Shown here: positions 2,749 through 23,469 of the stretch, piece after piece
How the letters are laid out: each line of letters begins with the position of its first letter
Position numbering within the stretch: position 1 is the stretch's first letter
IMG/VR virus record: IMGVR_UViG_3300036466_000062
Span: 1 to 26,633 of that record
Source of the DNA: a virus
Length of the DNA stretch: 26,633 bases
Direction: 5' to 3' (one strand)
The notes under the pieces: generated by a model
What the model saw: the letters and a program-made list of their open reading frames with translations, nothing else
Database searches by the model: none
Told to the model about the DNA's origin: nothing
Position numbers and translations under genes: made by a program

Positions 2749-3458
2749 TCCCTAGTTCTGATCGTAGACAGTTGATGCGTGAGAGATGTTATAGACATGA
2801 ACACCTCTTAGTAGGTATCGATCAGTCATTCTCTAATTACGCAATGGTGCTATTCAAAGATGGTGTTCCAATTGACCGTGTTGTATACCATACAGGTGAT
2901 CCGACTGCTAAGAAGAATAAGGGTAAGCAGTACGGTAAGTATTTTGAAAACCCTATCTTGCAAATTGATTATCTCTATGGTGAGGTATTGACCAAACTTG
3001 CTGAATGGAATCCTAATGATGTTGTGATGGAGGGATTAGCATTTGGCAGCACTGGTCAATATGAGCGCAACCTCGCAGCACTTTACTTTGGTATAATGGT
3101 CTCACTTCACCGTGAGTTAGGGTACAAATATAATAATCTGCATACAGTCACACCTATCCAAGCTAAGTCCTTAGCCAGAGAGTTCATGATAGGTGATGAT
3201 AAGTACCACAAAGAGAATGGCATCATCACTACATTGAAGTCAGGTCGTAGGAAATTAAATCCTATGAATGATAAGGCAGATGTTGTGAAGGCATTACAAA
3301 ACACACCTCATAGGTGGTTGCTTGATGGGTACACTCGTGATGGGCTTGCATTAGCTAGGACTCGTGAAACAGGTATGCATGATATACCTGATGCATATTT
3401 TATTGGACTAACAATACTTGAAAGTCTATTCGGATTTAAAGAAAATAGACCTGATTAA
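2745..3458 (+). CDS. RuvC-like Holliday-junction resolvase / RNase H-fold nuclease
   Basis: A 237-residue protein if started at ATG 2745, which overlaps the preceding stop as ATGA; a GTG at 2736 is in frame but less likely. RuvC-family acidic residues are visible: Asp26 in GIDQSFSNYA (first beta strand), Glu in DVVMEGLAFGSTG near residue 90, and a C-terminal HDIPDAYFIGL holding the last catalytic acids. RuvC-type enzymes cut Holliday junctions and branched DNA, which suits debranching of phage DNA before packaging. Between the second and third motifs there is an unusually long insert (residues about 135-190) rich in Lys and Arg. It sits between the exonuclease and the A1-like gene in one rightward block. 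Confidence 0.8.
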   Translation: MIPSSDRRQLMRERCYRHEHLLVGIDQSFSNYAMVLFKDGVPIDRVVYHTGDPTAKKNKGKQYGKYFENPILQIDYLYGEVLTKLAEWNPNDVVMEGLAFGSTGQYERNLAALYFGIMVSLHRELGYKYNNLHTVTPIQAKSLAREFMIGDDKYHKENGIITTLKSGRRKLNPMNDKADVVKALQNTPHRWLLDGYTRDGLALARTRETGMHDIPDAYFIGLTILESLFGFKENRPD

Positions 3459-3471
3459 AAGGAGGATAAGC

Positions 3472-5058
3472 TTGAGTAATGAATTTACACATGATGAATT
3501 AGTTGAGATTATTCGACTCAAGCTACAGGATCATGTAGGTAGCAGACGTATTGCTAAAATGTATGGGAGGGGTAAGACAACTATTAATGATTTCCTCTCC
3601 CGTAAAACCTATAAACAGTTTTGGGAAGAGTATGATAAGCGACCTGTAGCTGGAGGTGTGTTATCACCACCTGAGAGTAAGAGGGGTGAACTTAACGGGA
3701 CTAGATTTGTATTTACATCAGCTCAGAATAATACCTATGTACATGACAAGTTCCTTAAGTCACTTGAGAAGTATTGTGAGCACAATAATGCACAATTGGT
3801 TGTAGGTACATTCCACTATAACAAGTCTGGATTCCAAAATGGTTCAGACAAAGAAGTGTGGTATGATCCTAAGATCCGTGAGTATACCTGTGACCAATCA
3901 ATGAAGGTGGCAAACAAACTGGTGTGGTGTGGAGAGTTAAACATCCTACCAACAGCTAAAACACCATTATCCGGATTGTATAACTATACAGCAGACAATA
4001 GTGCCATTGTCCCACATGCCAAGGTTCAACTTGAGAGCATCCCAACCCCTAAGTCTGATGATCCGAAGTTGATGTATACAACTGGTGCAGTTACTCAAAT
4101 GAACTATGTTCAAATGAAAGCTGGACAGGTAGCTGAGTGGCATCATATCTTTGGTGCATTGGCTGTGGAGATTGATGAAGATGGTGATTGGTTTGTTCGC
4201 CAACTGATAGCAGAGAGTGACACTGGTGAGTTCTATGATCTAGGTGAAAGGTACACACCATCTGGTGTCTCCTGTGATCACCGTGTAGAGGCGATCAACT
4301 ATGGTGACATCCATGCAGCTAAGCTTGATGATGTAGTCGCTGAGACAAGCTGGAGGGCTCAAAATTCAATTTTAGATACCCTTAAGCCTAAGTACCAATT
4401 CATACATGATGTATTAGATCAACAAGCACGTAACCACCATAATATACGTGACCCGCATTTCATGTTTAGGATGTTCAACAACCAAACTGAGTCTGTAAAG
4501 GATGAGGTCATCTTGACAGCCAATGTGATCAAGGAAACTGTGCGTGACTTTAGCCAAACTGTTGTGGTTGAATCCAACCATGACTTGGCATTGACAAAGT
4601 GGCTAAAGGAGCAAGACTACCGATGCGATCCAGTAAATGCTGTGTTCTTCCTAGAGATGCAGCTTGCATCATATAAGGCAATAGAGGCAGGTGGTTCACT
4701 AGCAGCATTCGAGTACGCATGTAAAAACTATTGTGATGGATTGGAAGGTGTAAGATTTCTAGGTACAGATGAGAGCTTCCGCATTGGAACAGGTATTGAG
4801 TGTGGCTCACATGGACATAACGGTAATAATGGAAGTCGTGGATCTATGCAAACATACCTGAAATTGGGAATTAAGCACAACTTAGGGCATGTACATGGTG
4901 CAGCTATTCGTGATGGGATATACTATGCTGGTGTCTCTGGCAAGTTAGAAATGGGGTATAATCAGGGAGGAGGATCTTGGAACCACTCTCATATCCTTAC
5001 CTACCAAAATAGCAAGAGGGCAATCATTACCTTGAAAAATGGTAAGTGGAGAGCTTGA
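3472..5058 (+). CDS. HTH-metallophosphoesterase, T5 A1-like DNA-transfer/nuclease protein
   Basis: I place the start at TTG 3472, seven bases after AAAAGGAGG (3457-3465), giving 528 residues; an upstream in-frame start at 3418 lacks this site. Residues about 5-50 look like a resolvase-type helix-turn-helix (SRRIAKMYGRGKTTINDFL). The second half has calcineurin-like metallophosphoesterase motifs: GDIH at 278-281, SNHD at 368-371, HGHNGNNG from 447, and GHVH at 472-475. The pattern and length are like phage proteins annotated as DNA transfer protein A1, which in T5 (556 residues) is needed for second-step DNA transfer and host DNA breakdown. The metal motifs are seen; the link to A1 is from memory of the family and needs an alignment. 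A DNA-binding nuclease is the safest functional call. Confidence 0.7.
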   Translation: MSNEFTHDELVEIIRLKLQDHVGSRRIAKMYGRGKTTINDFLSRKTYKQFWEEYDKRPVAGGVLSPPESKRGELNGTRFVFTSAQNNTYVHDKFLKSLEKYCEHNNAQLVVGTFHYNKSGFQNGSDKEVWYDPKIREYTCDQSMKVANKLVWCGELNILPTAKTPLSGLYNYTADNSAIVPHAKVQLESIPTPKSDDPKLMYTTGAVTQMNYVQMKAGQVAEWHHIFGALAVEIDEDGDWFVRQLIAESDTGEFYDLGERYTPSGVSCDHRVEAINYGDIHAAKLDDVVAETSWRAQNSILDTLKPKYQFIHDVLDQQARNHHNIRDPHFMFRMFNNQTESVKDEVILTANVIKETVRDFSQTVVVESNHDLALTKWLKEQDYRCDPVNAVFFLEMQLASYKAIEAGGSLAAFEYACKNYCDGLEGVRFLGTDESFRIGTGIECGSHGHNGNNGSRGSMQTYLKLGIKHNLGHVHGAAIRDGIYYAGVSGKLEMGYNQGGGSWNHSHILTYQNSKRAIITLKNGKWRA

Positions 5059-5153: not shown

Positions 5154-7763
5154 GTGATTGAGACTATAATTAAGGCTGATGGAAGAATGGAGCCTTTTGA
5201 TGCAGGAAAGCTAAACCGATGGGGGCAGTACGCTGCAAAGACTGGTGGTGATTGGTCAACAGTGGTTATGAAAACTGTGAAGAGGTTGCCAAAAGTGGCA
5301 TCTTCAGATGATGTACACCAAACAATGATTGATGTGTGTGTTGAACTTGAATCCCTAGAATACTCCAAACTGGCAGCTAGGCTACAGTTTGCAACATTAC
5401 GAAAGAACTTAGGCAGACTAGGTGTAAGTGACTCTGGTAGCTTTGAAGATATCTATGAAACATTATGTGGTCATGGTGTATGGGACAAGGAATCATTACC
5501 AGAATATAACCCAGTGTGGGAACTTTGGTATAAAGATCTCTACCAATTACGGATGGACTACTGGCAAGTAAAACAGTTTGATGATAAGTATGGCCTAAAG
5601 TATAAAGGTAAGGTTGTGGAGACACCACATATTGCTGCCCTAGGATTGGCATTATCACACCACGGAACCACAGAGCTGGCGTACAAGACCGCTAAGGCAA
5701 TTTTGTCAGGTAAGCTGAACCTACCAACACCTGCACTGAATGGTGGACGTAATGGAGACTTTGATAGTGTATCTTGTTGTGTGATCACTGGTGGTGATAC
5801 TGTAGATAGTATTGGTGTTGCAGAGCATATTGCATACAAGATGACAGCTAAGAAGGCTGGGATTGGTATTGAATTTAATACGCGATCTAAAGGCTCACCA
5901 GTTAAAGGGGGTAGGGTTGCACACCTTGGTAAGCATGGGATCTACTCAACAGTTGACAAGGCTGTAAAGATGTTCTCTCAAATAACCCGCGGGGGGAGTG
6001 CAACTGTCACGTATGCAGCAATTGATCCACAGATCATGGAAATGCTGTTGTGGAAGACTCAGAAGATTGACATAGAGCAGCGCATTGACAAGCTAGATTA
6101 CTCACTGGCATATAATGACTCATTTGTCAATGCAGTTATAAGTAATGATGACTGGTATTTGTTTGACTATGCTTCAGCACCAGAAGTTCATGAAGCTTTC
6201 TATACTGAAGATTCCGATGGCTACAATTTAGTAGTTGAGCAAAACAAGCACAAGGCAGTATCAACAATCAAGGCACAGGAATTGCTAAAGAGGTTCCTCA
6301 CATCAAGACAGGAAACTGGACGTATATACTGTTTGAATGTAACTAGGGCTAATACTCATACACCCTTTATTGATAAAATCACCTTGAGTAATCTTTGTGT
6401 TGCACCAGAGACAAAAATCCTTACCAGAGATGGGTATAGGGAGATATGGGGACTTGAGGGCAGGACTATTGACATATGGAATGGTGAAGAGTGGTCATCT
6501 GTTGATGTAGTTAAGACTGGTGTTGATCAGGAAATGATCTCTGTGTCTGTTCATAGTTACGTTGACGGTAAGTTTGAAGGTACAAATACTCTTAGATGCA
6601 CACCCTACCACAAATGGTACAATTTAGATGGTAAGGGGTTAAGGACATTCCAACTTCAAGTTGGAGGAAGCTTACTCCCTTGGCATTCACCTGATGGTAG
6701 GTTGCACTACTCAATAGTAGAAAACTTAGAGGTCTCTTCCCGCAGTGACACCTTCTGCTTCAAAGAGCTTAAGAGGGGGATGGGTGTTTTCAATGGTATC
6801 CTAACCGGGCAGTGCCAAGAGATCATGCTACCAACCAAGGCATATGAGGGTATGTATGACCTGTACCAACAGGGTGAAAATCCAGTATCTGTAGGTGAGA
6901 CAGCATTCTGCTCATTAGCAGCAATTAATGTTGGTAAACTCAATACTGATTTATCTGAGTATGAAGAACTAGCAGATATTGCACTCCGCACTGTTGACTC
7001 TATGATATCCAAGACATCAGCAATGACACAGACTATGTTTGAATCAATGCAACGTAGACGTTCTGTAGGTATTGGTATCACTGGATTAGCACAGTACCTT
7101 TATAACTGTGGCTCAGACTACACAGGAGATACAGACTCACTATTGCTTGTGAGTAAGTTAGCTGAGAAACACTACCACTCGTTACTGGTTGCATCACAAG
7201 GTATGGTCACTGATGGCTCTTGTAAGCCTGTTAGCGGGATTAATCTTAATTGGCTACCAGTTGACACTGCATATAACAAATATGAGCCACATCTTGATTG
7301 GGAGTCTTTAAGGGGTAAGGATCGTGGACACTCAGTGTTGGTTGCCCATATGCCCACAGAAAGTTCAGCCGTTTTTTCTGGTGCGACTAATGGATTATAC
7401 CCACCACGTAACAAGATCATCTATAAGCAATCACGTAAAGGTGCTATTCAATTCATCTTAGATAAGGACAATTTTATCCCATTCTGGGATGTTGATAATA
7501 TTGTGATGAGTAAATATTACAGCCGTGTTCAGGACTTTACAGACCAAGGGATTTCTGCGGATTATGTGGTTGTTCCTGAGAAACACCCTAATGGAAAGGT
7601 TCCACTATCCCATTTAATGAAAGAGTGGGTAGCACAGGCAAGATTGGGCAACAAGACTATGTACTATGTCAATACAAAGCCTAATAAGAGTGTTAGTGTA
7701 AAGGATCTCGTTGCATCAAAAGAGGTAGAGGTAGAAGCCTGTGAAGGTGGATGTAAGATTTAA
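5154..7763 (+). CDS. nrdA: Class Ia ribonucleotide reductase large subunit, intein-containing precursor
   Basis: An 869-residue precursor starting at GTG 5154, ten bases after AAGGAG (5138-5143). It reduces ribonucleoside diphosphates to dNDPs with NrdB. Residues about 1-90 are an ATP-cone regulatory domain. Active-site elements are the Cys pair SVSCCVITGG (C208/C209; one matches E. coli C225), the N-x-C-x-E motif split by an intein (N413, then C554 and E556 after splicing), C586 in FCSLAAINVG (E. coli C462), FSGATNGLYPP near the C terminus, and a final redox tail CEGGC (C863, C867). Removing the 139-residue intein leaves 730 residues, close to E. coli NrdA (761). The intein sits immediately before the radical-bearing Cys (E. 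coli C439), so the enzyme should be inactive until splicing. NrdB follows 16 bases downstream. Confidence 0.95.
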   Translation: MIETIIKADGRMEPFDAGKLNRWGQYAAKTGGDWSTVVMKTVKRLPKVASSDDVHQTMIDVCVELESLEYSKLAARLQFATLRKNLGRLGVSDSGSFEDIYETLCGHGVWDKESLPEYNPVWELWYKDLYQLRMDYWQVKQFDDKYGLKYKGKVVETPHIAALGLALSHHGTTELAYKTAKAILSGKLNLPTPALNGGRNGDFDSVSCCVITGGDTVDSIGVAEHIAYKMTAKKAGIGIEFNTRSKGSPVKGGRVAHLGKHGIYSTVDKAVKMFSQITRGGSATVTYAAIDPQIMEMLLWKTQKIDIEQRIDKLDYSLAYNDSFVNAVISNDDWYLFDYASAPEVHEAFYTEDSDGYNLVVEQNKHKAVSTIKAQELLKRFLTSRQETGRIYCLNVTRANTHTPFIDKITLSNLCVAPETKILTRDGYREIWGLEGRTIDIWNGEEWSSVDVVKTGVDQEMISVSVHSYVDGKFEGTNTLRCTPYHKWYNLDGKGLRTFQLQVGGSLLPWHSPDGRLHYSIVENLEVSSRSDTFCFKELKRGMGVFNGILTGQCQEIMLPTKAYEGMYDLYQQGENPVSVGETAFCSLAAINVGKLNTDLSEYEELADIALRTVDSMISKTSAMTQTMFESMQRRRSVGIGITGLAQYLYNCGSDYTGDTDSLLLVSKLAEKHYHSLLVASQGMVTDGSCKPVSGINLNWLPVDTAYNKYEPHLDWESLRGKDRGHSVLVAHMPTESSAVFSGATNGLYPPRNKIIYKQSRKGAIQFILDKDNFIPFWDVDNIVMSKYYSRVQDFTDQGISADYVVVPEKHPNGKVPLSHLMKEWVAQARLGNKTMYYVNTKPNKSVSVKDLVASKEVEVEACEGGCKI
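6396..6812 (+). mobile_element. Mini-intein in NrdA, C-terminal Gln, no endonuclease domain
   Basis: In-frame insert of 139 residues (precursor 415-553) between SNL and CQEIMLPT of the reductase. It begins CVAPETKILTRDGY, a classical block A with nucleophilic Cys1. Block B is TLRCTPYHKW with T483 and H486 (intein 69 and 72). It ends FNGILTGQ followed by Cys+1. The length leaves no room for a homing endonuclease. Two unusual points: the last residue is Gln where most inteins have Asn, and the preceding residue is Gly where His is usual; inteins with C-terminal Gln are known and some splice. The block F stretch reads KELKRGMGVFNG, with no His. I see no stop or intron-like RNA structure, so a self-splicing intron is not needed to explain it. 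Splicing activity is inferred. Confidence 0.92.
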
Positions 7764-7779
7764 CATAAGAGAGGAACAA

Positions 7780-8853
7780 ATGTCTACAAAATTTAATAAA
7801 GACAACTCAGGGTACCTAGATGGAAAGTATCCACTATTTTTAGGGGAGGATCTTGGTTTTCCCGATAACGTGAATATTACATACCCAGTATTGGAGGAGT
7901 TGTACCAGAAACAACTCTCTCAGATATGGAATGAGCATGAGATTGACTTGACTCAAGATCGGATGGATATGATCTCCTTGCCAAAATCAACTGTCCTTCC
8001 TATGAAGTTGACTGTGATGACACAAGCTGTATCTGATGCTATGGCATCTCGTACCATTAGTTCGGTCATGATGCCACATGCATCCAACCCTGAGTTTGAG
8101 AACCTTATCAACTTGTGGACATTCTTTGAAACGATTCACAATAGAACCTATGCCCACATTATCAAACAGACATTTGAAAATCCGGTAGAGATGATGCAGG
8201 AAGCATATGCAAATGAACGGGTAATGCTACGATCGGAAACCATCTTAAAGGCATTTGATGATGCTGCAAGCTTACCATCTGGCTGCACTACATTAGAGGC
8301 TCAAGTGGCGATCCTGAAAGCATTCACTGCCCTCTTTGGGCTTGAGGCTATCATGTTCATGAGCTCATTCGCTGTAACCTTTGCAATATCAGAGACAGGT
8401 TCATTTCAAGGAATTGGTAAGCTAATCGAAATGATCTGCAAAGATGAAGTACTGCACACCCGTATGGATTATGAAGTACTTAACATCCTCAAGGGTGAAG
8501 GATGGGGTGTTGCTGTAGAACTTGCTGCACCTCATATGAAGGAAATCTTGGATGACATAGTGGATCATGAGTTATCTTGGTCAGAATATGTGTTCACCGA
8601 GGGGCAAATTGCAGGACTTACATCGGATCTACTCCAACAGTATGTACTCCACATGGCTAAACCTGTATATGATGCACTCGGTCTTGACTTCAGTTATGAA
8701 GTTGTGGAGAGTAATCCCCTTAAATATATGGATAAGTATGTTGATAGCTCTGTTATGCAAGTTGCTAATCAAGAGATGCAGTCAGGGCAATATCAGACTG
8801 GTGCTATTGTAGATGACACTAATGGTATTAGCTTTGATGATTTAGACTTTTAG
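7780..8853 (+). CDS. nrdB: Class Ia ribonucleotide reductase small (radical) subunit
   Basis: 357 residues from ATG 7780, after GAGAGGAA; an earlier in-frame GTG at 7741 lies inside nrdA and lacks a site. NrdB carries the di-iron centre and tyrosyl radical that drives NrdA. All expected ligands are visible: the Asp in AVSDAMASR, ETIHNRTY holding Glu, His and the radical Tyr in the E-x2-H-x3-Y spacing of E. coli (E115, H118, Y122), the Glu in LEAIMFMSSF, and the Glu/His of KDEVLH. The acidic, hydrophobic C terminus (SFDDLDF) should dock on NrdA as in E. coli. It is probably co-translated with nrdA. An inverted repeat follows the stop codon. Confidence 0.95.
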   Translation: MSTKFNKDNSGYLDGKYPLFLGEDLGFPDNVNITYPVLEELYQKQLSQIWNEHEIDLTQDRMDMISLPKSTVLPMKLTVMTQAVSDAMASRTISSVMMPHASNPEFENLINLWTFFETIHNRTYAHIIKQTFENPVEMMQEAYANERVMLRSETILKAFDDAASLPSGCTTLEAQVAILKAFTALFGLEAIMFMSSFAVTFAISETGSFQGIGKLIEMICKDEVLHTRMDYEVLNILKGEGWGVAVELAAPHMKEILDDIVDHELSWSEYVFTEGQIAGLTSDLLQQYVLHMAKPVYDALGLDFSYEVVESNPLKYMDKYVDSSVMQVANQEMQSGQYQTGAIVDDTNGISFDDLDF

Positions 8854-13581: not shown

Positions 13582-14139
13582 ATGGCTAACAAGAGAGCAC
13601 ATATAGGTATCATTAGGCACACAGTACCAGAACCAACAGTATTCTATGGATGTAGCGCTGAGTGTGCAGAAAAGATGGGTATAACTATAAGGGCATTGAA
13701 CTACTTGAGGTCTGGTGTTAACAAGATTAACAAGCAAGGTTGGAAAGTAATGACTGAGGAGGAGTATGCTAAATACTACCAACCACCACGGCCTTACAAA
13801 CTTCCTGATAAGAAGCCAGGATCAAACGAGCGTAAGTATTGGAAGTTACTTATCCTAAAAGATTGGAAGGCTGGTGAGCTATACCCCAAAGAGAAAGAGA
13901 GGGTGTTCTCTGGTACTATAGTTGAATTTTCCAAAAGGATTGGTTGTCAAGTAGGACAGGTTCACAGGATGGTTAATGCTTACTTAGGCATACTCGATGA
14001 TTACCCATTACGCTCGCTGAGAGGCTGGAGAATAGCCAGATTACGTAAGTACACTGGTGATGAAGTACGTACCAAACGTGTGTGGTGTAAAGAACAGAAG
14101 AAGATGGTGTATGTCAAACAAACGATACGAGGGAGCTGA
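13582..14139 (+). CDS. Protein with two NUMOD-like DNA-binding repeats
   Basis: 185 residues from ATG 13582 after GGGGGGTTAA. Two similar segments occur: residues about 14-55 (TVFYGCSAECAEKMGI then RSGVNKINKQGWKVM) and 108-155 (VFSGTIVEFSKRIGC then RSLRGWRIARLR). Each reads hydrophobic start, a helix-turn-helix (xExAxxxGI), basic loop, then GW(K/R), the pattern of NUMOD/IENR1 repeats found in homing endonucleases. The rest is basic, fitting DNA binding. The 3' end overlaps a possible GIY-YIG endonuclease, so the two may be the separated parts of one homing enzyme. The repeat call is by eye. Confidence 0.6.
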   Translation: MANKRAHIGIIRHTVPEPTVFYGCSAECAEKMGITIRALNYLRSGVNKINKQGWKVMTEEEYAKYYQPPRPYKLPDKKPGSNERKYWKLLILKDWKAGELYPKEKERVFSGTIVEFSKRIGCQVGQVHRMVNAYLGILDDYPLRSLRGWRIARLRKYTGDEVRTKRVWCKEQKKMVYVKQTIRGS

Positions 14140-14797
14140 GATATACTTAACATCCTGCACCCATCCAGAGTTCTCACACTTGAGATATTTAGGTTTAGAC
14201 ACCAAATGTGACCCACAGTATATTGGTTCCAGTGTTGTACTCAAATGGTGGGTACAATACCTTGGTAGGCAATACTTTAGAAAAGATATCCTAGAACATG
14301 TATCTGGTAGTATGTCTGAGATGTGTGCAGTTGAACAAAAGTATATACTAAAGTATGATGCTGTCAGAAACCCCAATTTCCTAAACATGAATGGTGGTCA
14401 ACAGAACTTATCAGTTGAGGATTATGTTGTGAGTATGGATTTTAACATTGTACCTACCTCACAAGTATCTCAGGGATTCGTGAATCGCATTCTAAGGGGT
14501 TTTACTGACAATGGAGTACCATTATCGCAGGATAAGAAGAACGTGGCTTCTAGGGTACTCTGTGTGGCTCTGTATGGATACCTGAAGTATGGACAGGAGC
14601 AGTTTGAGTATTCAAAGTATAGAGACTACTGTGGGTGTGATAGTAACACAGTTTCAAGTGTGCTAGGTTTGCTAACTGATAATGGTTGGGTAGATGTGGC
14701 AGGTGGTTTTATAGTGATACAGGATAAGCTGATTGAGGAGATGCCAGATGAGGTGTTGTACACTCAGTTTAAATCTGTGATAATGAATTATGAGTAA
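14111..14797 (+). CDS. Possible GIY-YIG-like homing endonuclease with C-terminal HTH
   Basis: From ATG 14111 (228 residues; an in-frame start at 14057 would give 246 but would overlap the previous gene by 83 bases). The N-terminal part has YLGLDTKCDPQYIGSS, a candidate GIY-YIG motif with the first element degenerate (LRY), then GRQYFRKDILEHV, a Glu in MCAVEQKYI at the usual catalytic Glu position, and NPNFLNMNGG matching the final Asn. No Arg is obvious at the canonical Arg site. The C-terminal 110 residues look like a winged helix (YCGCDSNTVSSVLG). Together with the preceding gene it looks like a mobile insertion between 13581 and 14818. An inactive relative is possible. Confidence 0.5.
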   Translation: MSNKRYEGAEIYLTSCTHPEFSHLRYLGLDTKCDPQYIGSSVVLKWWVQYLGRQYFRKDILEHVSGSMSEMCAVEQKYILKYDAVRNPNFLNMNGGQQNLSVEDYVVSMDFNIVPTSQVSQGFVNRILRGFTDNGVPLSQDKKNVASRVLCVALYGYLKYGQEQFEYSKYRDYCGCDSNTVSSVLGLLTDNGWVDVAGGFIVIQDKLIEEMPDEVLYTQFKSVIMNYE

Positions 14798-21639: not shown

Positions 21640-23469
21640 TTGGAAAGTTTAGTTGAGAAGATTTTATCGGTGGTGAATGGTGATAATGAGGAGGTTGTTA
21701 CAGGTAACGCGAATAAATCAACAGAGGTGTTTTCTACACAAAGGGATCTGATAGCAGGGGAAGCTGCAAAGTATATTGCACACAACTACTTGCTACCTAA
21801 GCACCTTTCAGAAGCACATTTAGAGGGTAAAATCCACATACATGACTTAGACTATGCACCATTATCAGGACAATCAAACTGTTGCCTAATAAACCTAGAT
21901 GATATGCTGACTAATGGGTTTAAGATGAATGGAGTAGAGATCACAACACCAACTAATATCAACACCGCTATGACATTAGCAAGTCAAATTGTAATGGCGG
22001 TGGCATCATGCCAATATGGTGGCATTAGCTTTGATAGGTTTGATGAGGTATTAGAGAAGTATGTTACAATGACATACAATAAGCATCTATTGGTTGCTAA
22101 TAATTTTAATATACAAGATAAAGAAGATTACGCTCACTCAAGAACAGAGAAAGATGTATATGACGCATGTCAGACATTTGAATATCAAGTTAACTCTATG
22201 ACATGCACATCAGGGCAAACACCCTTTATAACTATTGGCTTTGGCTTGGGGGCATCTTGGGAAGCTAAACTACTGCAAGAGTGTATATTAAAGATCCGCA
22301 TTGGTGGACTTGGGGAGCATAAGACTACAGCTATCTTCCCTAAATTGATTTATAGCATCAAAGATGGAGTCAATCATAAGAAGGATGATCCTAATTATGA
22401 TATTAAGCAGTTAGCTGTGGAGTGTTCTTCTAAAAGACTCTACCCTGATATCCTAAATTATGATCAAGTGGTTGATGTAACAGGCAGCTTTAAGGCTAGT
22501 ATGGGATGTCGATCATTCCTCTCTAAACTGGAGAAGGACGGCAAAGAAATCCACTCTGGTAGAAGCAATCTTGGTGTGGTTACTATTAACCTACCTATGG
22601 TCGCAATGGAAGCTGGCAGTGTAGATAATTTCTACCAGTTACTAGAGGAATACTTAGGTTTAGCTAAAGAGGTTTGTGAGTTTAGATTAGATTACCTTTC
22701 TAAGGTTAAAGCAAAATCAGCCCCTATACTCTATCAAGAAGGTGGCCTATTAAGGCTGCAACCAGATGAGTTAGTATTACCACATCTAATCGATCGTGGC
22801 AGCAGCATCTCTGTTGGATACATTGGCATCAATGAGACAGTAAATGCACTATTAGAGGGTGATCATTTGCTGCATGATAAGAATAAACAAAAGTTAGCCA
22901 TTGAAATTCTAGAGTTCTTTAATGAGAAGGTAACACAGTTCAAGGAAGAGTCTGGTGTAGGTTATTCTGTCTATGCAACACCATCAGAAAGCCAATGCAA
23001 GAGGTTACGTGATGCAGCATACAATAAGTTTGGTGAAGTGTCTGGTGTCACCGATAAGGAATATTTTACTAATAGTTTCCATCTAGAAGCATCAATGCAA
23101 ACTGATCCCTATACCCGTATGGACTTTGAACGTCAGTTTATCTCATTATCAGCAGGTGGTTTCATCTCCTATAGTGAGTTACCAGACATGAAAAACAACC
23201 TACAGGCACTAGAAGATTTATGGGATTTTAGCTACAACGTAACACCCTATTATGCAATCAATACACCAGTTGATGTTTGTTTTGAATGCAACTTTGGAGG
23301 GACGATGGACAACACAAGTAGGGGTTTCCGCTGTAAGCGCTGTGGTAACACTGACCAAAGAAGAATGTATGTAATTCGAAGAGTAAGTGGCTACCTAGGC
23401 AACCCAAACTCCAGACCTTTCAACAAAGGGAAAATGCAAGAATGTAATGATAGAAAAATAAACCAGTAA
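21640..23469 (+). CDS. nrdD: Anaerobic (class III) ribonucleotide reductase
   Basis: 609 residues from TTG 21640 after AAGGAGAGACAA. Reduces ribonucleoside triphosphates without oxygen using a glycyl radical. Visible elements are C124 (VASCQYGG), C290 (MGCRSF, the same number as T4 NrdD's catalytic Cys), four zinc-site cysteines (C547, C550, C565, C568 in CFEC and CKRC) and the glycyl radical loop RVSGYLGNPNSRP with Gly584. No NrdG activase gene is seen in the window; activation could come from the host or from elsewhere in the phage genome. A weak N-terminal ATP-cone region seems absent or very short compared with cellular NrdD (about 710). Confidence 0.93.
   Translation: MESLVEKILSVVNGDNEEVVTGNANKSTEVFSTQRDLIAGEAAKYIAHNYLLPKHLSEAHLEGKIHIHDLDYAPLSGQSNCCLINLDDMLTNGFKMNGVEITTPTNINTAMTLASQIVMAVASCQYGGISFDRFDEVLEKYVTMTYNKHLLVANNFNIQDKEDYAHSRTEKDVYDACQTFEYQVNSMTCTSGQTPFITIGFGLGASWEAKLLQECILKIRIGGLGEHKTTAIFPKLIYSIKDGVNHKKDDPNYDIKQLAVECSSKRLYPDILNYDQVVDVTGSFKASMGCRSFLSKLEKDGKEIHSGRSNLGVVTINLPMVAMEAGSVDNFYQLLEEYLGLAKEVCEFRLDYLSKVKAKSAPILYQEGGLLRLQPDELVLPHLIDRGSSISVGYIGINETVNALLEGDHLLHDKNKQKLAIEILEFFNEKVTQFKEESGVGYSVYATPSESQCKRLRDAAYNKFGEVSGVTDKEYFTNSFHLEASMQTDPYTRMDFERQFISLSAGGFISYSELPDMKNNLQALEDLWDFSYNVTPYYAINTPVDVCFECNFGGTMDNTSRGFRCKRCGNTDQRRMYVIRRVSGYLGNPNSRPFNKGKMQECNDRKINQ

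What the first reader, a model, noticed from the sequence alone, without database searches (positions are those of the whole stretch)
6396..6812. Mini-intein immediately before the radical Cys of phage NrdA, with C-terminal Gln and Gly-Gln end
The 139-residue insert is placed so that Cys+1 is the catalytic Cys equivalent to E. coli C439. Splicing would therefore create the active site, making dNTP production depend on intein excision. The last two residues are Gly-Gln instead of His-Asn, and no His is visible in the block F region (KRGMGVFNG). Inteins with terminal Gln are known, but this combination may splice slowly or be regulated, for example by redox state.
Basis: partly seen in the sequence, partly recalled or inferred. 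Interest (0 to 1): 0.72.

Follow-up and report, generated by a model that had tools for sequence, protein, structure and literature searches.

The report
Phage ribonucleotide reductase mini-intein, Gly-Gln end
A phage gene for the enzyme that makes DNA building blocks carries a small self-removing protein segment exactly in front of its key catalytic cysteine; the segment's odd Gly-Gln ending turns out to be the commonest ending of a large, well-conserved family at this same site, so it is a real but ordinary member of a known kind.

Summary
Window 6396-6812 encodes a 139-aa class 1 mini-intein in phage nrdA (ORF 5154-7763), inserted as SNL|CVAPET...ILTGQ|CQEI. Cys+1 is the radical Cys (E. coli C439); intein-less relatives read straight through. 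An AlphaFold model (pLDDT 94) matches solved inteins (best NrdJ-1, Z 20). The Gly-Gln end and the Gly at the block F His position are also correct. The reading as an odd, perhaps slow or regulated intein is not supported. Scans gave 128 distinct inteins at exactly this site, in class I and II RNRs of phages and bacteria. None has penultimate His (121 have Gly); 85 end in Gln, 43 in Asn; F:13 is His in only 61; Cys1, block B TxxH, F:4 Cys and Cys+1 are invariant. The window's triple combination occurs in 39, including cholera phage ICP1; dN/dS between close relatives is mostly 0.05-0.17. The SPbeta intein sits at the same site, also with penultimate Gly. A published Gln-ended RNR intein (Chilo iridescent virus) splices better with Gln than Asn. 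So: new member of a known kind, most likely splicing-competent. Redox control is untested and has no specific support.

The parts
5154..7763 (+). nrdA precursor gene (class I RNR large subunit with in-frame intein), 869 aa, GTG start
   Evidence: ORF; PF02867 E 2.5e-70; E. coli R1 alignment to the C-terminal CEGGCKI
5154..6395 (+). N-extein (414 aa), ends ...ITLSNL; contains the C225 and N437 equivalents
6396..6812 (+). mini-intein, 139 aa, no homing endonuclease domain
6396..6398 (+). intein Cys1 (block A nucleophile), start of CVAPETKILT
   Evidence: sequence; Cys in 128/128 same-site inteins
6597..6611 (+). block B C68-T69-P-Y-H72 (TxxH)
   Evidence: sequence; TxxH found in 128/128 same-site inteins
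6756..6758 (+). block F:4 Cys121
   Evidence: Cys in 128/128
6777..6779 (+). block F:13 position: Gly128 in place of the usual His
   Evidence: His 61, Gly 40, Asn 26, Ser 1 in 128 inteins; alignment to a canonical block F
6807..6812 (+). block G end Gly138-Gln139 (penultimate Gly, terminal Gln)
   Evidence: sequence; GQ in 81 of 128 same-site inteins
6813..6815 (+). Cys+1 = radical Cys of NrdA (E. coli C439 equivalent)
   Evidence: alignment to E. coli R1 and intein-less phage NrdA
6813..7760 (+). C-extein (316 aa) with E441, C462, Y730-Y731 and C-terminal Cys pair equivalents
7741..8853 (+). nrdB (class I RNR small subunit), partner of NrdA
   Evidence: PF00268 E 9.1e-38
21640..23469 (+). 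nrdD (class III anaerobic RNR), a second possible dNTP source; context only
   Evidence: phrog_487 E 1.2e-252

Best explanation
This is a class 1 mini-intein without a homing endonuclease. It belongs to the family of inteins that occupy the radical-cysteine site of ribonucleotide reductases (apparently the site called RIR1-l in the intein literature). It most likely removes itself soon after translation: Cys1 forms a thioester, the chain is passed to Cys+1, Gln139 cyclises to a glutarimide to release the intein, and the S-to-N shift joins SNL to CQEI, recreating the N-C-E active-site motif of NrdA. The Gly-Gln end and the missing block F His are a normal state of this family, not damage. Shown: the site, the Hint fold (by prediction), the intact nucleophiles, family-wide conservation and purifying selection on relatives. 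Inferred: that this copy splices, its rate, and that Gln cyclisation is assisted by residues other than the two usual histidines. It probably persists because only precise loss of an insert at an invariant active-site codon would keep the enzyme (inference).
For: Exact insert against intein-less relatives. Intein profile hit, profile match to solved inteins, high-confidence intein fold with Z 20.2 to NrdJ-1. 128 distinct inteins at the same site, all with Cys1, TxxH, F:4 Cys and Cys+1, none with penultimate His, 85 ending in Gln; this holds for loci found by the N-terminal pattern alone, 60 viral and 26 genomic inteins, so it is not due to the C-terminal search pattern. 19 distinct mini-inteins of 132-151 aa, including one in an isolate, Nitrincola phage 1M3-16. 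dN/dS mostly 0.05-0.17 in pairs with reasonable divergence, among them ICP1/eugene with the window's own residue combination. Published: the CIV RNR intein splices with native Gln better than with Asn (PMC4031507).
Against: Splicing of this protein was not tested, and no paper read here tests a member that lacks His at both F:13 and G:6 and ends in Gln. Gln-ended archaeal PolII inteins splice slowly (PMC4031507, PMC8175363). The window copy has only one other sequence, 100% identical at DNA level, so selection on this lineage itself cannot be measured. The CIV intein sequence was not examined here.
Confidence: 0.87

Rival explanations
1. Slow or conditional intein: the lack of both histidines and the terminal Gln make splicing slow or dependent on redox (for example a Cys1 to Cys+1 disulfide), so that NrdA activity is switched by reduction.
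For: Gln-ended Pab and Pho PolII inteins are slow, and Pab carries a Cys1-Cys+1 disulfide (PMC8175363). The window intein has Cys at 1, 68 and 121 besides Cys+1. The phage also has an anaerobic NrdD, so NrdA could be dispensable in some conditions.
Against: The same residue combination is shared by 39 distinct inteins, including that of lytic phage ICP1. F:4 Cys is invariant in the family and the Cys before the block B Thr is present in 112 of 128, so neither is specific to this copy. There is no Cys in the adjacent N-extein (ITLSNL). The CIV RNR intein prefers Gln (PMC4031507). The bacterial cytoplasm is normally reducing (general knowledge).
Confidence: 0.1
2. Degenerate intein that no longer splices; NrdA of this phage is dead and dNTPs come from the host or from NrdD.
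For: No homing endonuclease, two assisting histidines missing, terminal Asn missing.
Against: Both exteins keep all catalytic residues and the ORF is intact over 869 aa. The nucleophiles are intact, and the same residue state is under strong purifying selection in relatives. An inactive intein in an active-site codon should be followed by decay of the gene, which is not seen.
Confidence: 0.04
3. Not an intein but a lineage-specific domain insertion in NrdA.
For: The Pfam scan shows no Hint model hit for the isolated insert, and TIGR01445 is just under its cut-off.
Against: Fold match to many solved inteins at Z 14-20, profile match to solved inteins, exact insertion before Cys, and allelic relatives annotated as inteins in ICP1, SelmaRatti and phiCbK.
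Confidence: 0.01

Closest known systems
NrdA intein of Vibrio phage ICP1 (gp203) and Vibrio phage eugene 12A10
   Same: Identical insertion site, same block F/G signature KRGMGMFNGILTGQ|C (Gly at F:13, Gly-Gln end), class I NrdA
   Different: 328 aa with a LAGLIDADG endonuclease (PMC10448857), the window has none; about 54% identity over the matched splicing segments
NrdA mini-intein of Nitrincola phage 1M3-16 (L008; not annotated as an intein)
   Same: Same site, mini-intein of 136 aa, Gly-Gln end, 51% identity
   Different: Asn at F:13 instead of Gly (LRNMG instead of KRGMG)
Chilo iridescent virus (IIV6) RIR1 intein
   Same: RNR large-subunit intein ending in Gln, splices (PMC4031507); said to share the phiCbK NrdA intein feature (PMC3556154)
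   Different: Insect virus; full-length intein (PMC1635734); not fetched or aligned here, so site identity rests on papers
SPbeta BnrdE intein and Corynebacterium phage P1201 NrdE intein
   Same: Exactly the same site SNL|C...TGN|C with penultimate Gly
   Different: Terminal Asn; block F with Asp at F:4 and His at F:13; they lack the WNGEEWS motif: a different branch
Pab and Pho PolII inteins
   Same: Terminal Gln
   Different: Penultimate His and block F His present, slow splicing, archaeal DNA polymerase (PMC8175363, PMC8229266)

Membership tests
Intein (Hint-domain protein splicing element), class 1 | In-frame insert absent from homologues, with exact junctions | tested here: met
   VCPH, Phriendly, D239 and E. 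coli uninterrupted
Intein (Hint-domain protein splicing element), class 1 | Hint fold | tested here: met
   predicted model pLDDT 94.4, Z 20.2 to the NrdJ-1 intein
Intein (Hint-domain protein splicing element), class 1 | Cys/Ser at position 1, TxxH in block B, Cys/Ser/Thr at +1 | tested here: met
   sequence
Intein (Hint-domain protein splicing element), class 1 | C-terminal residue able to cyclise (Asn, Gln or Asp) | tested here: met
   Gln139; Gln cyclisation described in PMC4031507
Intein (Hint-domain protein splicing element), class 1 | Penultimate His and block F His (common, not obligatory) | tested here: not met
   Gly138 and Gly128; about 5% of functional inteins have another G:6 residue and neither His is required in all inteins (PMC4031507), so this is not a defining feature
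Intein (Hint-domain protein splicing element), class 1 | Splicing activity | not testable with these tools
   needs expression
RNR radical-Cys-site inteins (RIR1-l) | Insertion immediately before the radical Cys of the RNR large subunit | tested here: met
   same junction in SPbeta and in the other 127 inteins collected; that the literature's name for this site is RIR1-l is inferred from PMC1635734 and PMC3556154
Class 3 intein (WCT type) | No nucleophile at position 1; F:4 Cys as branch nucleophile | tested here: not met
   Cys1 present; F:4 Cys also occurs commonly in class 1 (PMC4031507)
Homing (mobile) intein | Endonuclease domain | tested here: not met
   139 aa; fewer than 50 residues between block B and block F

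The most novel reading that the evidence does not exclude
The radical-Cys RNR inteins of this branch carry out C-terminal cleavage without the penultimate His, and often without the block F His, with Gln and Asn interchangeable, using other family-specific residues (the invariant F:4 Cys, the nearly invariant F:7 Glu, the invariant WNG motif). The window's 139-aa member would be a minimal natural model of His-free, Gln-terminated splicing.
Probability: 0.35. Interest if true: 0.5.

Novelty: new member of a known kind. Interest (0 to 1): 0.3.

Why it matters
RNR is a favourite target of inteins, and this family sits at the one codon that cannot be altered without killing the enzyme. The survey turns an apparent oddity into a rule: no penultimate His in 128 of 128, Gln in two thirds. 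It offers small natural inteins for studying how Gln cyclisation proceeds without the usual histidines.

Tried and rejected
Pfam scan of the isolated insert gave only a sub-threshold BPL_LplA_LipB match (E 0.09), rejected as chance: Hint fold and intein profiles fit instead. Single-sequence phmmer against PDB gave only spurious hits. Megablast of the N-extein DNA against phages found nothing. dN/dS on the window's own lineage was impossible: the only near copy, L002, is 100% identical over 4457 bases. The tree of 128 splicing domains (108 columns) is mostly unresolved; it needs 22 Gln/Asn changes on the best tree, but only 2 are forced by supported branches, so direction and number of changes are not claimed. 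No clear link between the F:13 residue and the Gln/Asn choice (H/Q 46, H/N 15, non-H/Q 39, non-H/N 28); the independent-pairs test had too few informative pairs. The primary CIV paper (Amitai 2004) and Dassa 2009 were not held. A structure of the whole precursor was not predicted.

Full report
What is there. The window is a virus record of 26,633 bases. ORF 5154-7763 encodes an 869-aa NrdA (PF02867 E 2.5e-70), followed by nrdB at 7741-8853. Aligned to E. coli R1, the protein keeps the catalytic set: the SNLC motif, the Glu two residues after the radical Cys, GETAFCSL, MYYVNT and a C-terminal Cys pair. One insert, residues 415-553 (6396-6812), interrupts it between SNL and CQEI. The Vibrio phages VCPH, Phriendly and D239 have the same stretch uninterrupted. 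A detail it did not spell out: the intein's own Cys1 takes the place of that Cys in the precursor, and the N437 and E441 equivalents lie on either side of the insert.

It is an intein. The insert matches intein_Nterm just under the curated cut-off. The profile of 19 mini-inteins at this site matches solved inteins by sequence. The AlphaFold model of the insert with five flanking residues on each side has mean pLDDT 94.4 and pTM 0.88; its matches are inteins and hedgehog Hint domains, led by the NrdJ-1 split intein. Block A Cys1, block B T69xxH72, block F:4 Cys121 and Cys+1 are present. There is no room for a homing endonuclease.

The odd end is the family rule. tblastn in phage records found 310 records with a similar stretch at E up to 1 (316 at E up to 10), against 4,648 records with a match to the whole NrdA. 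Pattern scans of viral contigs and of bacterial and archaeal genomes, combined with annotated phage regions, gave 128 distinct inteins. Every one sits directly before a Cys followed two residues later by Glu, mostly after SNL (84); ten follow NP, as in class II RNRs (for example NP|CGEQPLPPYG), and a mostly cyanobacterial set follows VNL. All 128 have Cys1, a TxxH block B, F:4 Cys and Cys+1. The last two residues are GQ 81, GN 40, SQ 3, and AQ, MN, LN and SN one each; penultimate His is never found. The block F:13 position is His 61, Gly 40, Asn 26, Ser 1. The combination no His at F:13, no His at G:6 and Gln at the end occurs in 39. Because one scan used the C-terminal motif, the count was repeated on loci found by the N-terminal motif only: 60 viral inteins (GQ 37, GN 20, MN, SQ and LN one each) and 26 from genomes (GQ 21, GN 3, SN and AQ one each), the same picture.

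Selection. Between pairs of relatives with usable divergence dN/dS is mostly 0.05-0.17, including GQ-ended pairs such as ICP1 and eugene (0.065, with dS near saturation) and two Xenococcaceae inteins (0.092, dS 0.16). That fits active inteins. For the window copy only an identical sequence exists, so the argument is by relatives.

What was known. The SPbeta BnrdE intein, among the first phage RNR inteins reported, is at this same site and ends TGN|C with penultimate Gly; so does the P1201 NrdE intein, whose host gene is stated to be experimentally functional (PMC3653736). [quoted passage not shown] the phiCbK sequence read here ends Gly-Asn. ICP1's NrdA intein and similar ones in other phages (at least 8 of 20 LAGLIDADG enzymes in that dataset) are in PMC10448857. 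RIR1-l allelic inteins are stated to occur in bacteria, phages and iridoviruses, with mini-inteins in two insect iridoviruses (PMC1635734). [quoted passage not shown]

How it most likely works. Standard class 1 splicing with Gln cyclisation in place of Asn. Shown: anatomy, predicted fold, conservation. Inferred: activity and rate of this copy, and the residues that assist step 3. Candidates are the family-specific conserved residues F:4 Cys (128 of 128), F:7 Glu (126 of 128) and the WNG motif (128 of 128); none is tested.

Regulation. The redox idea has no specific support. The potentially pairing cysteines are the catalytic ones or are family-wide. The PolII precedent for slow Gln splicing and a Cys1-Cys+1 disulfide (PMC8175363) keeps it alive at low probability. 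The phage also carries a class III nrdD at 21640-23469, so dNTP supply need not rest on NrdA alone.

Verdict. Observation confirmed; interpretation partly supported; new member of a known kind.

Noticed in passing
21640-23469: Anaerobic class III NrdD (phrog_487 E 1.2e-252) starting at TTG and matching the profile only from position 103; the N-terminal part of the profile is absent and the upstream frame is closed by stops.
   Followed up: partly
3418-5058: Protein matching the phage 'DNA transfer protein' family phrog_1745 (E 1.1e-194); with Demerecviridae-type Vibrio phages among the nearest NrdA relatives this suggests a T5-like phage.
   Followed up: no
14057-14797: Candidate free-standing homing endonuclease (phrog_314 E 5.6e-7), its listed ORF overlapping ORF 13582-14139; no Pfam match.
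   Followed up: partly
L003:4985-6250: In a related phage (contig 3300032607_000303) nrdA carries, besides a GN-ended mini-intein, a second interruption after ...SVLEAFMPK that holds a 305-aa ORF with weak zinc-ribbon and DUF559 matches, possibly a homing nuclease; no Rfam intron was found there.
   Followed up: partly
L188 and L189 (Methylophaga MAG contig PAJP01000006.1): The same intein match occurs at two places of one 114.8-kb contig; duplicate, repeated ends or chimera not checked.
   Followed up: no
L022: The phiCbK paper describes this intein's end as Gly-Gln while its own coordinates and the sequence give Gly-Asn (TGN|C).
   Followed up: yes
L193-L209, L214: Cyanobacterial genomes (Microcystis, Crocosphaera, Hydrococcus, Calothrix and others) carry large GQ-ended inteins at the equivalent radical-Cys site (mostly VNL|C), suggesting spread between phage and bacterial RNRs of different classes.
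   Followed up: partly
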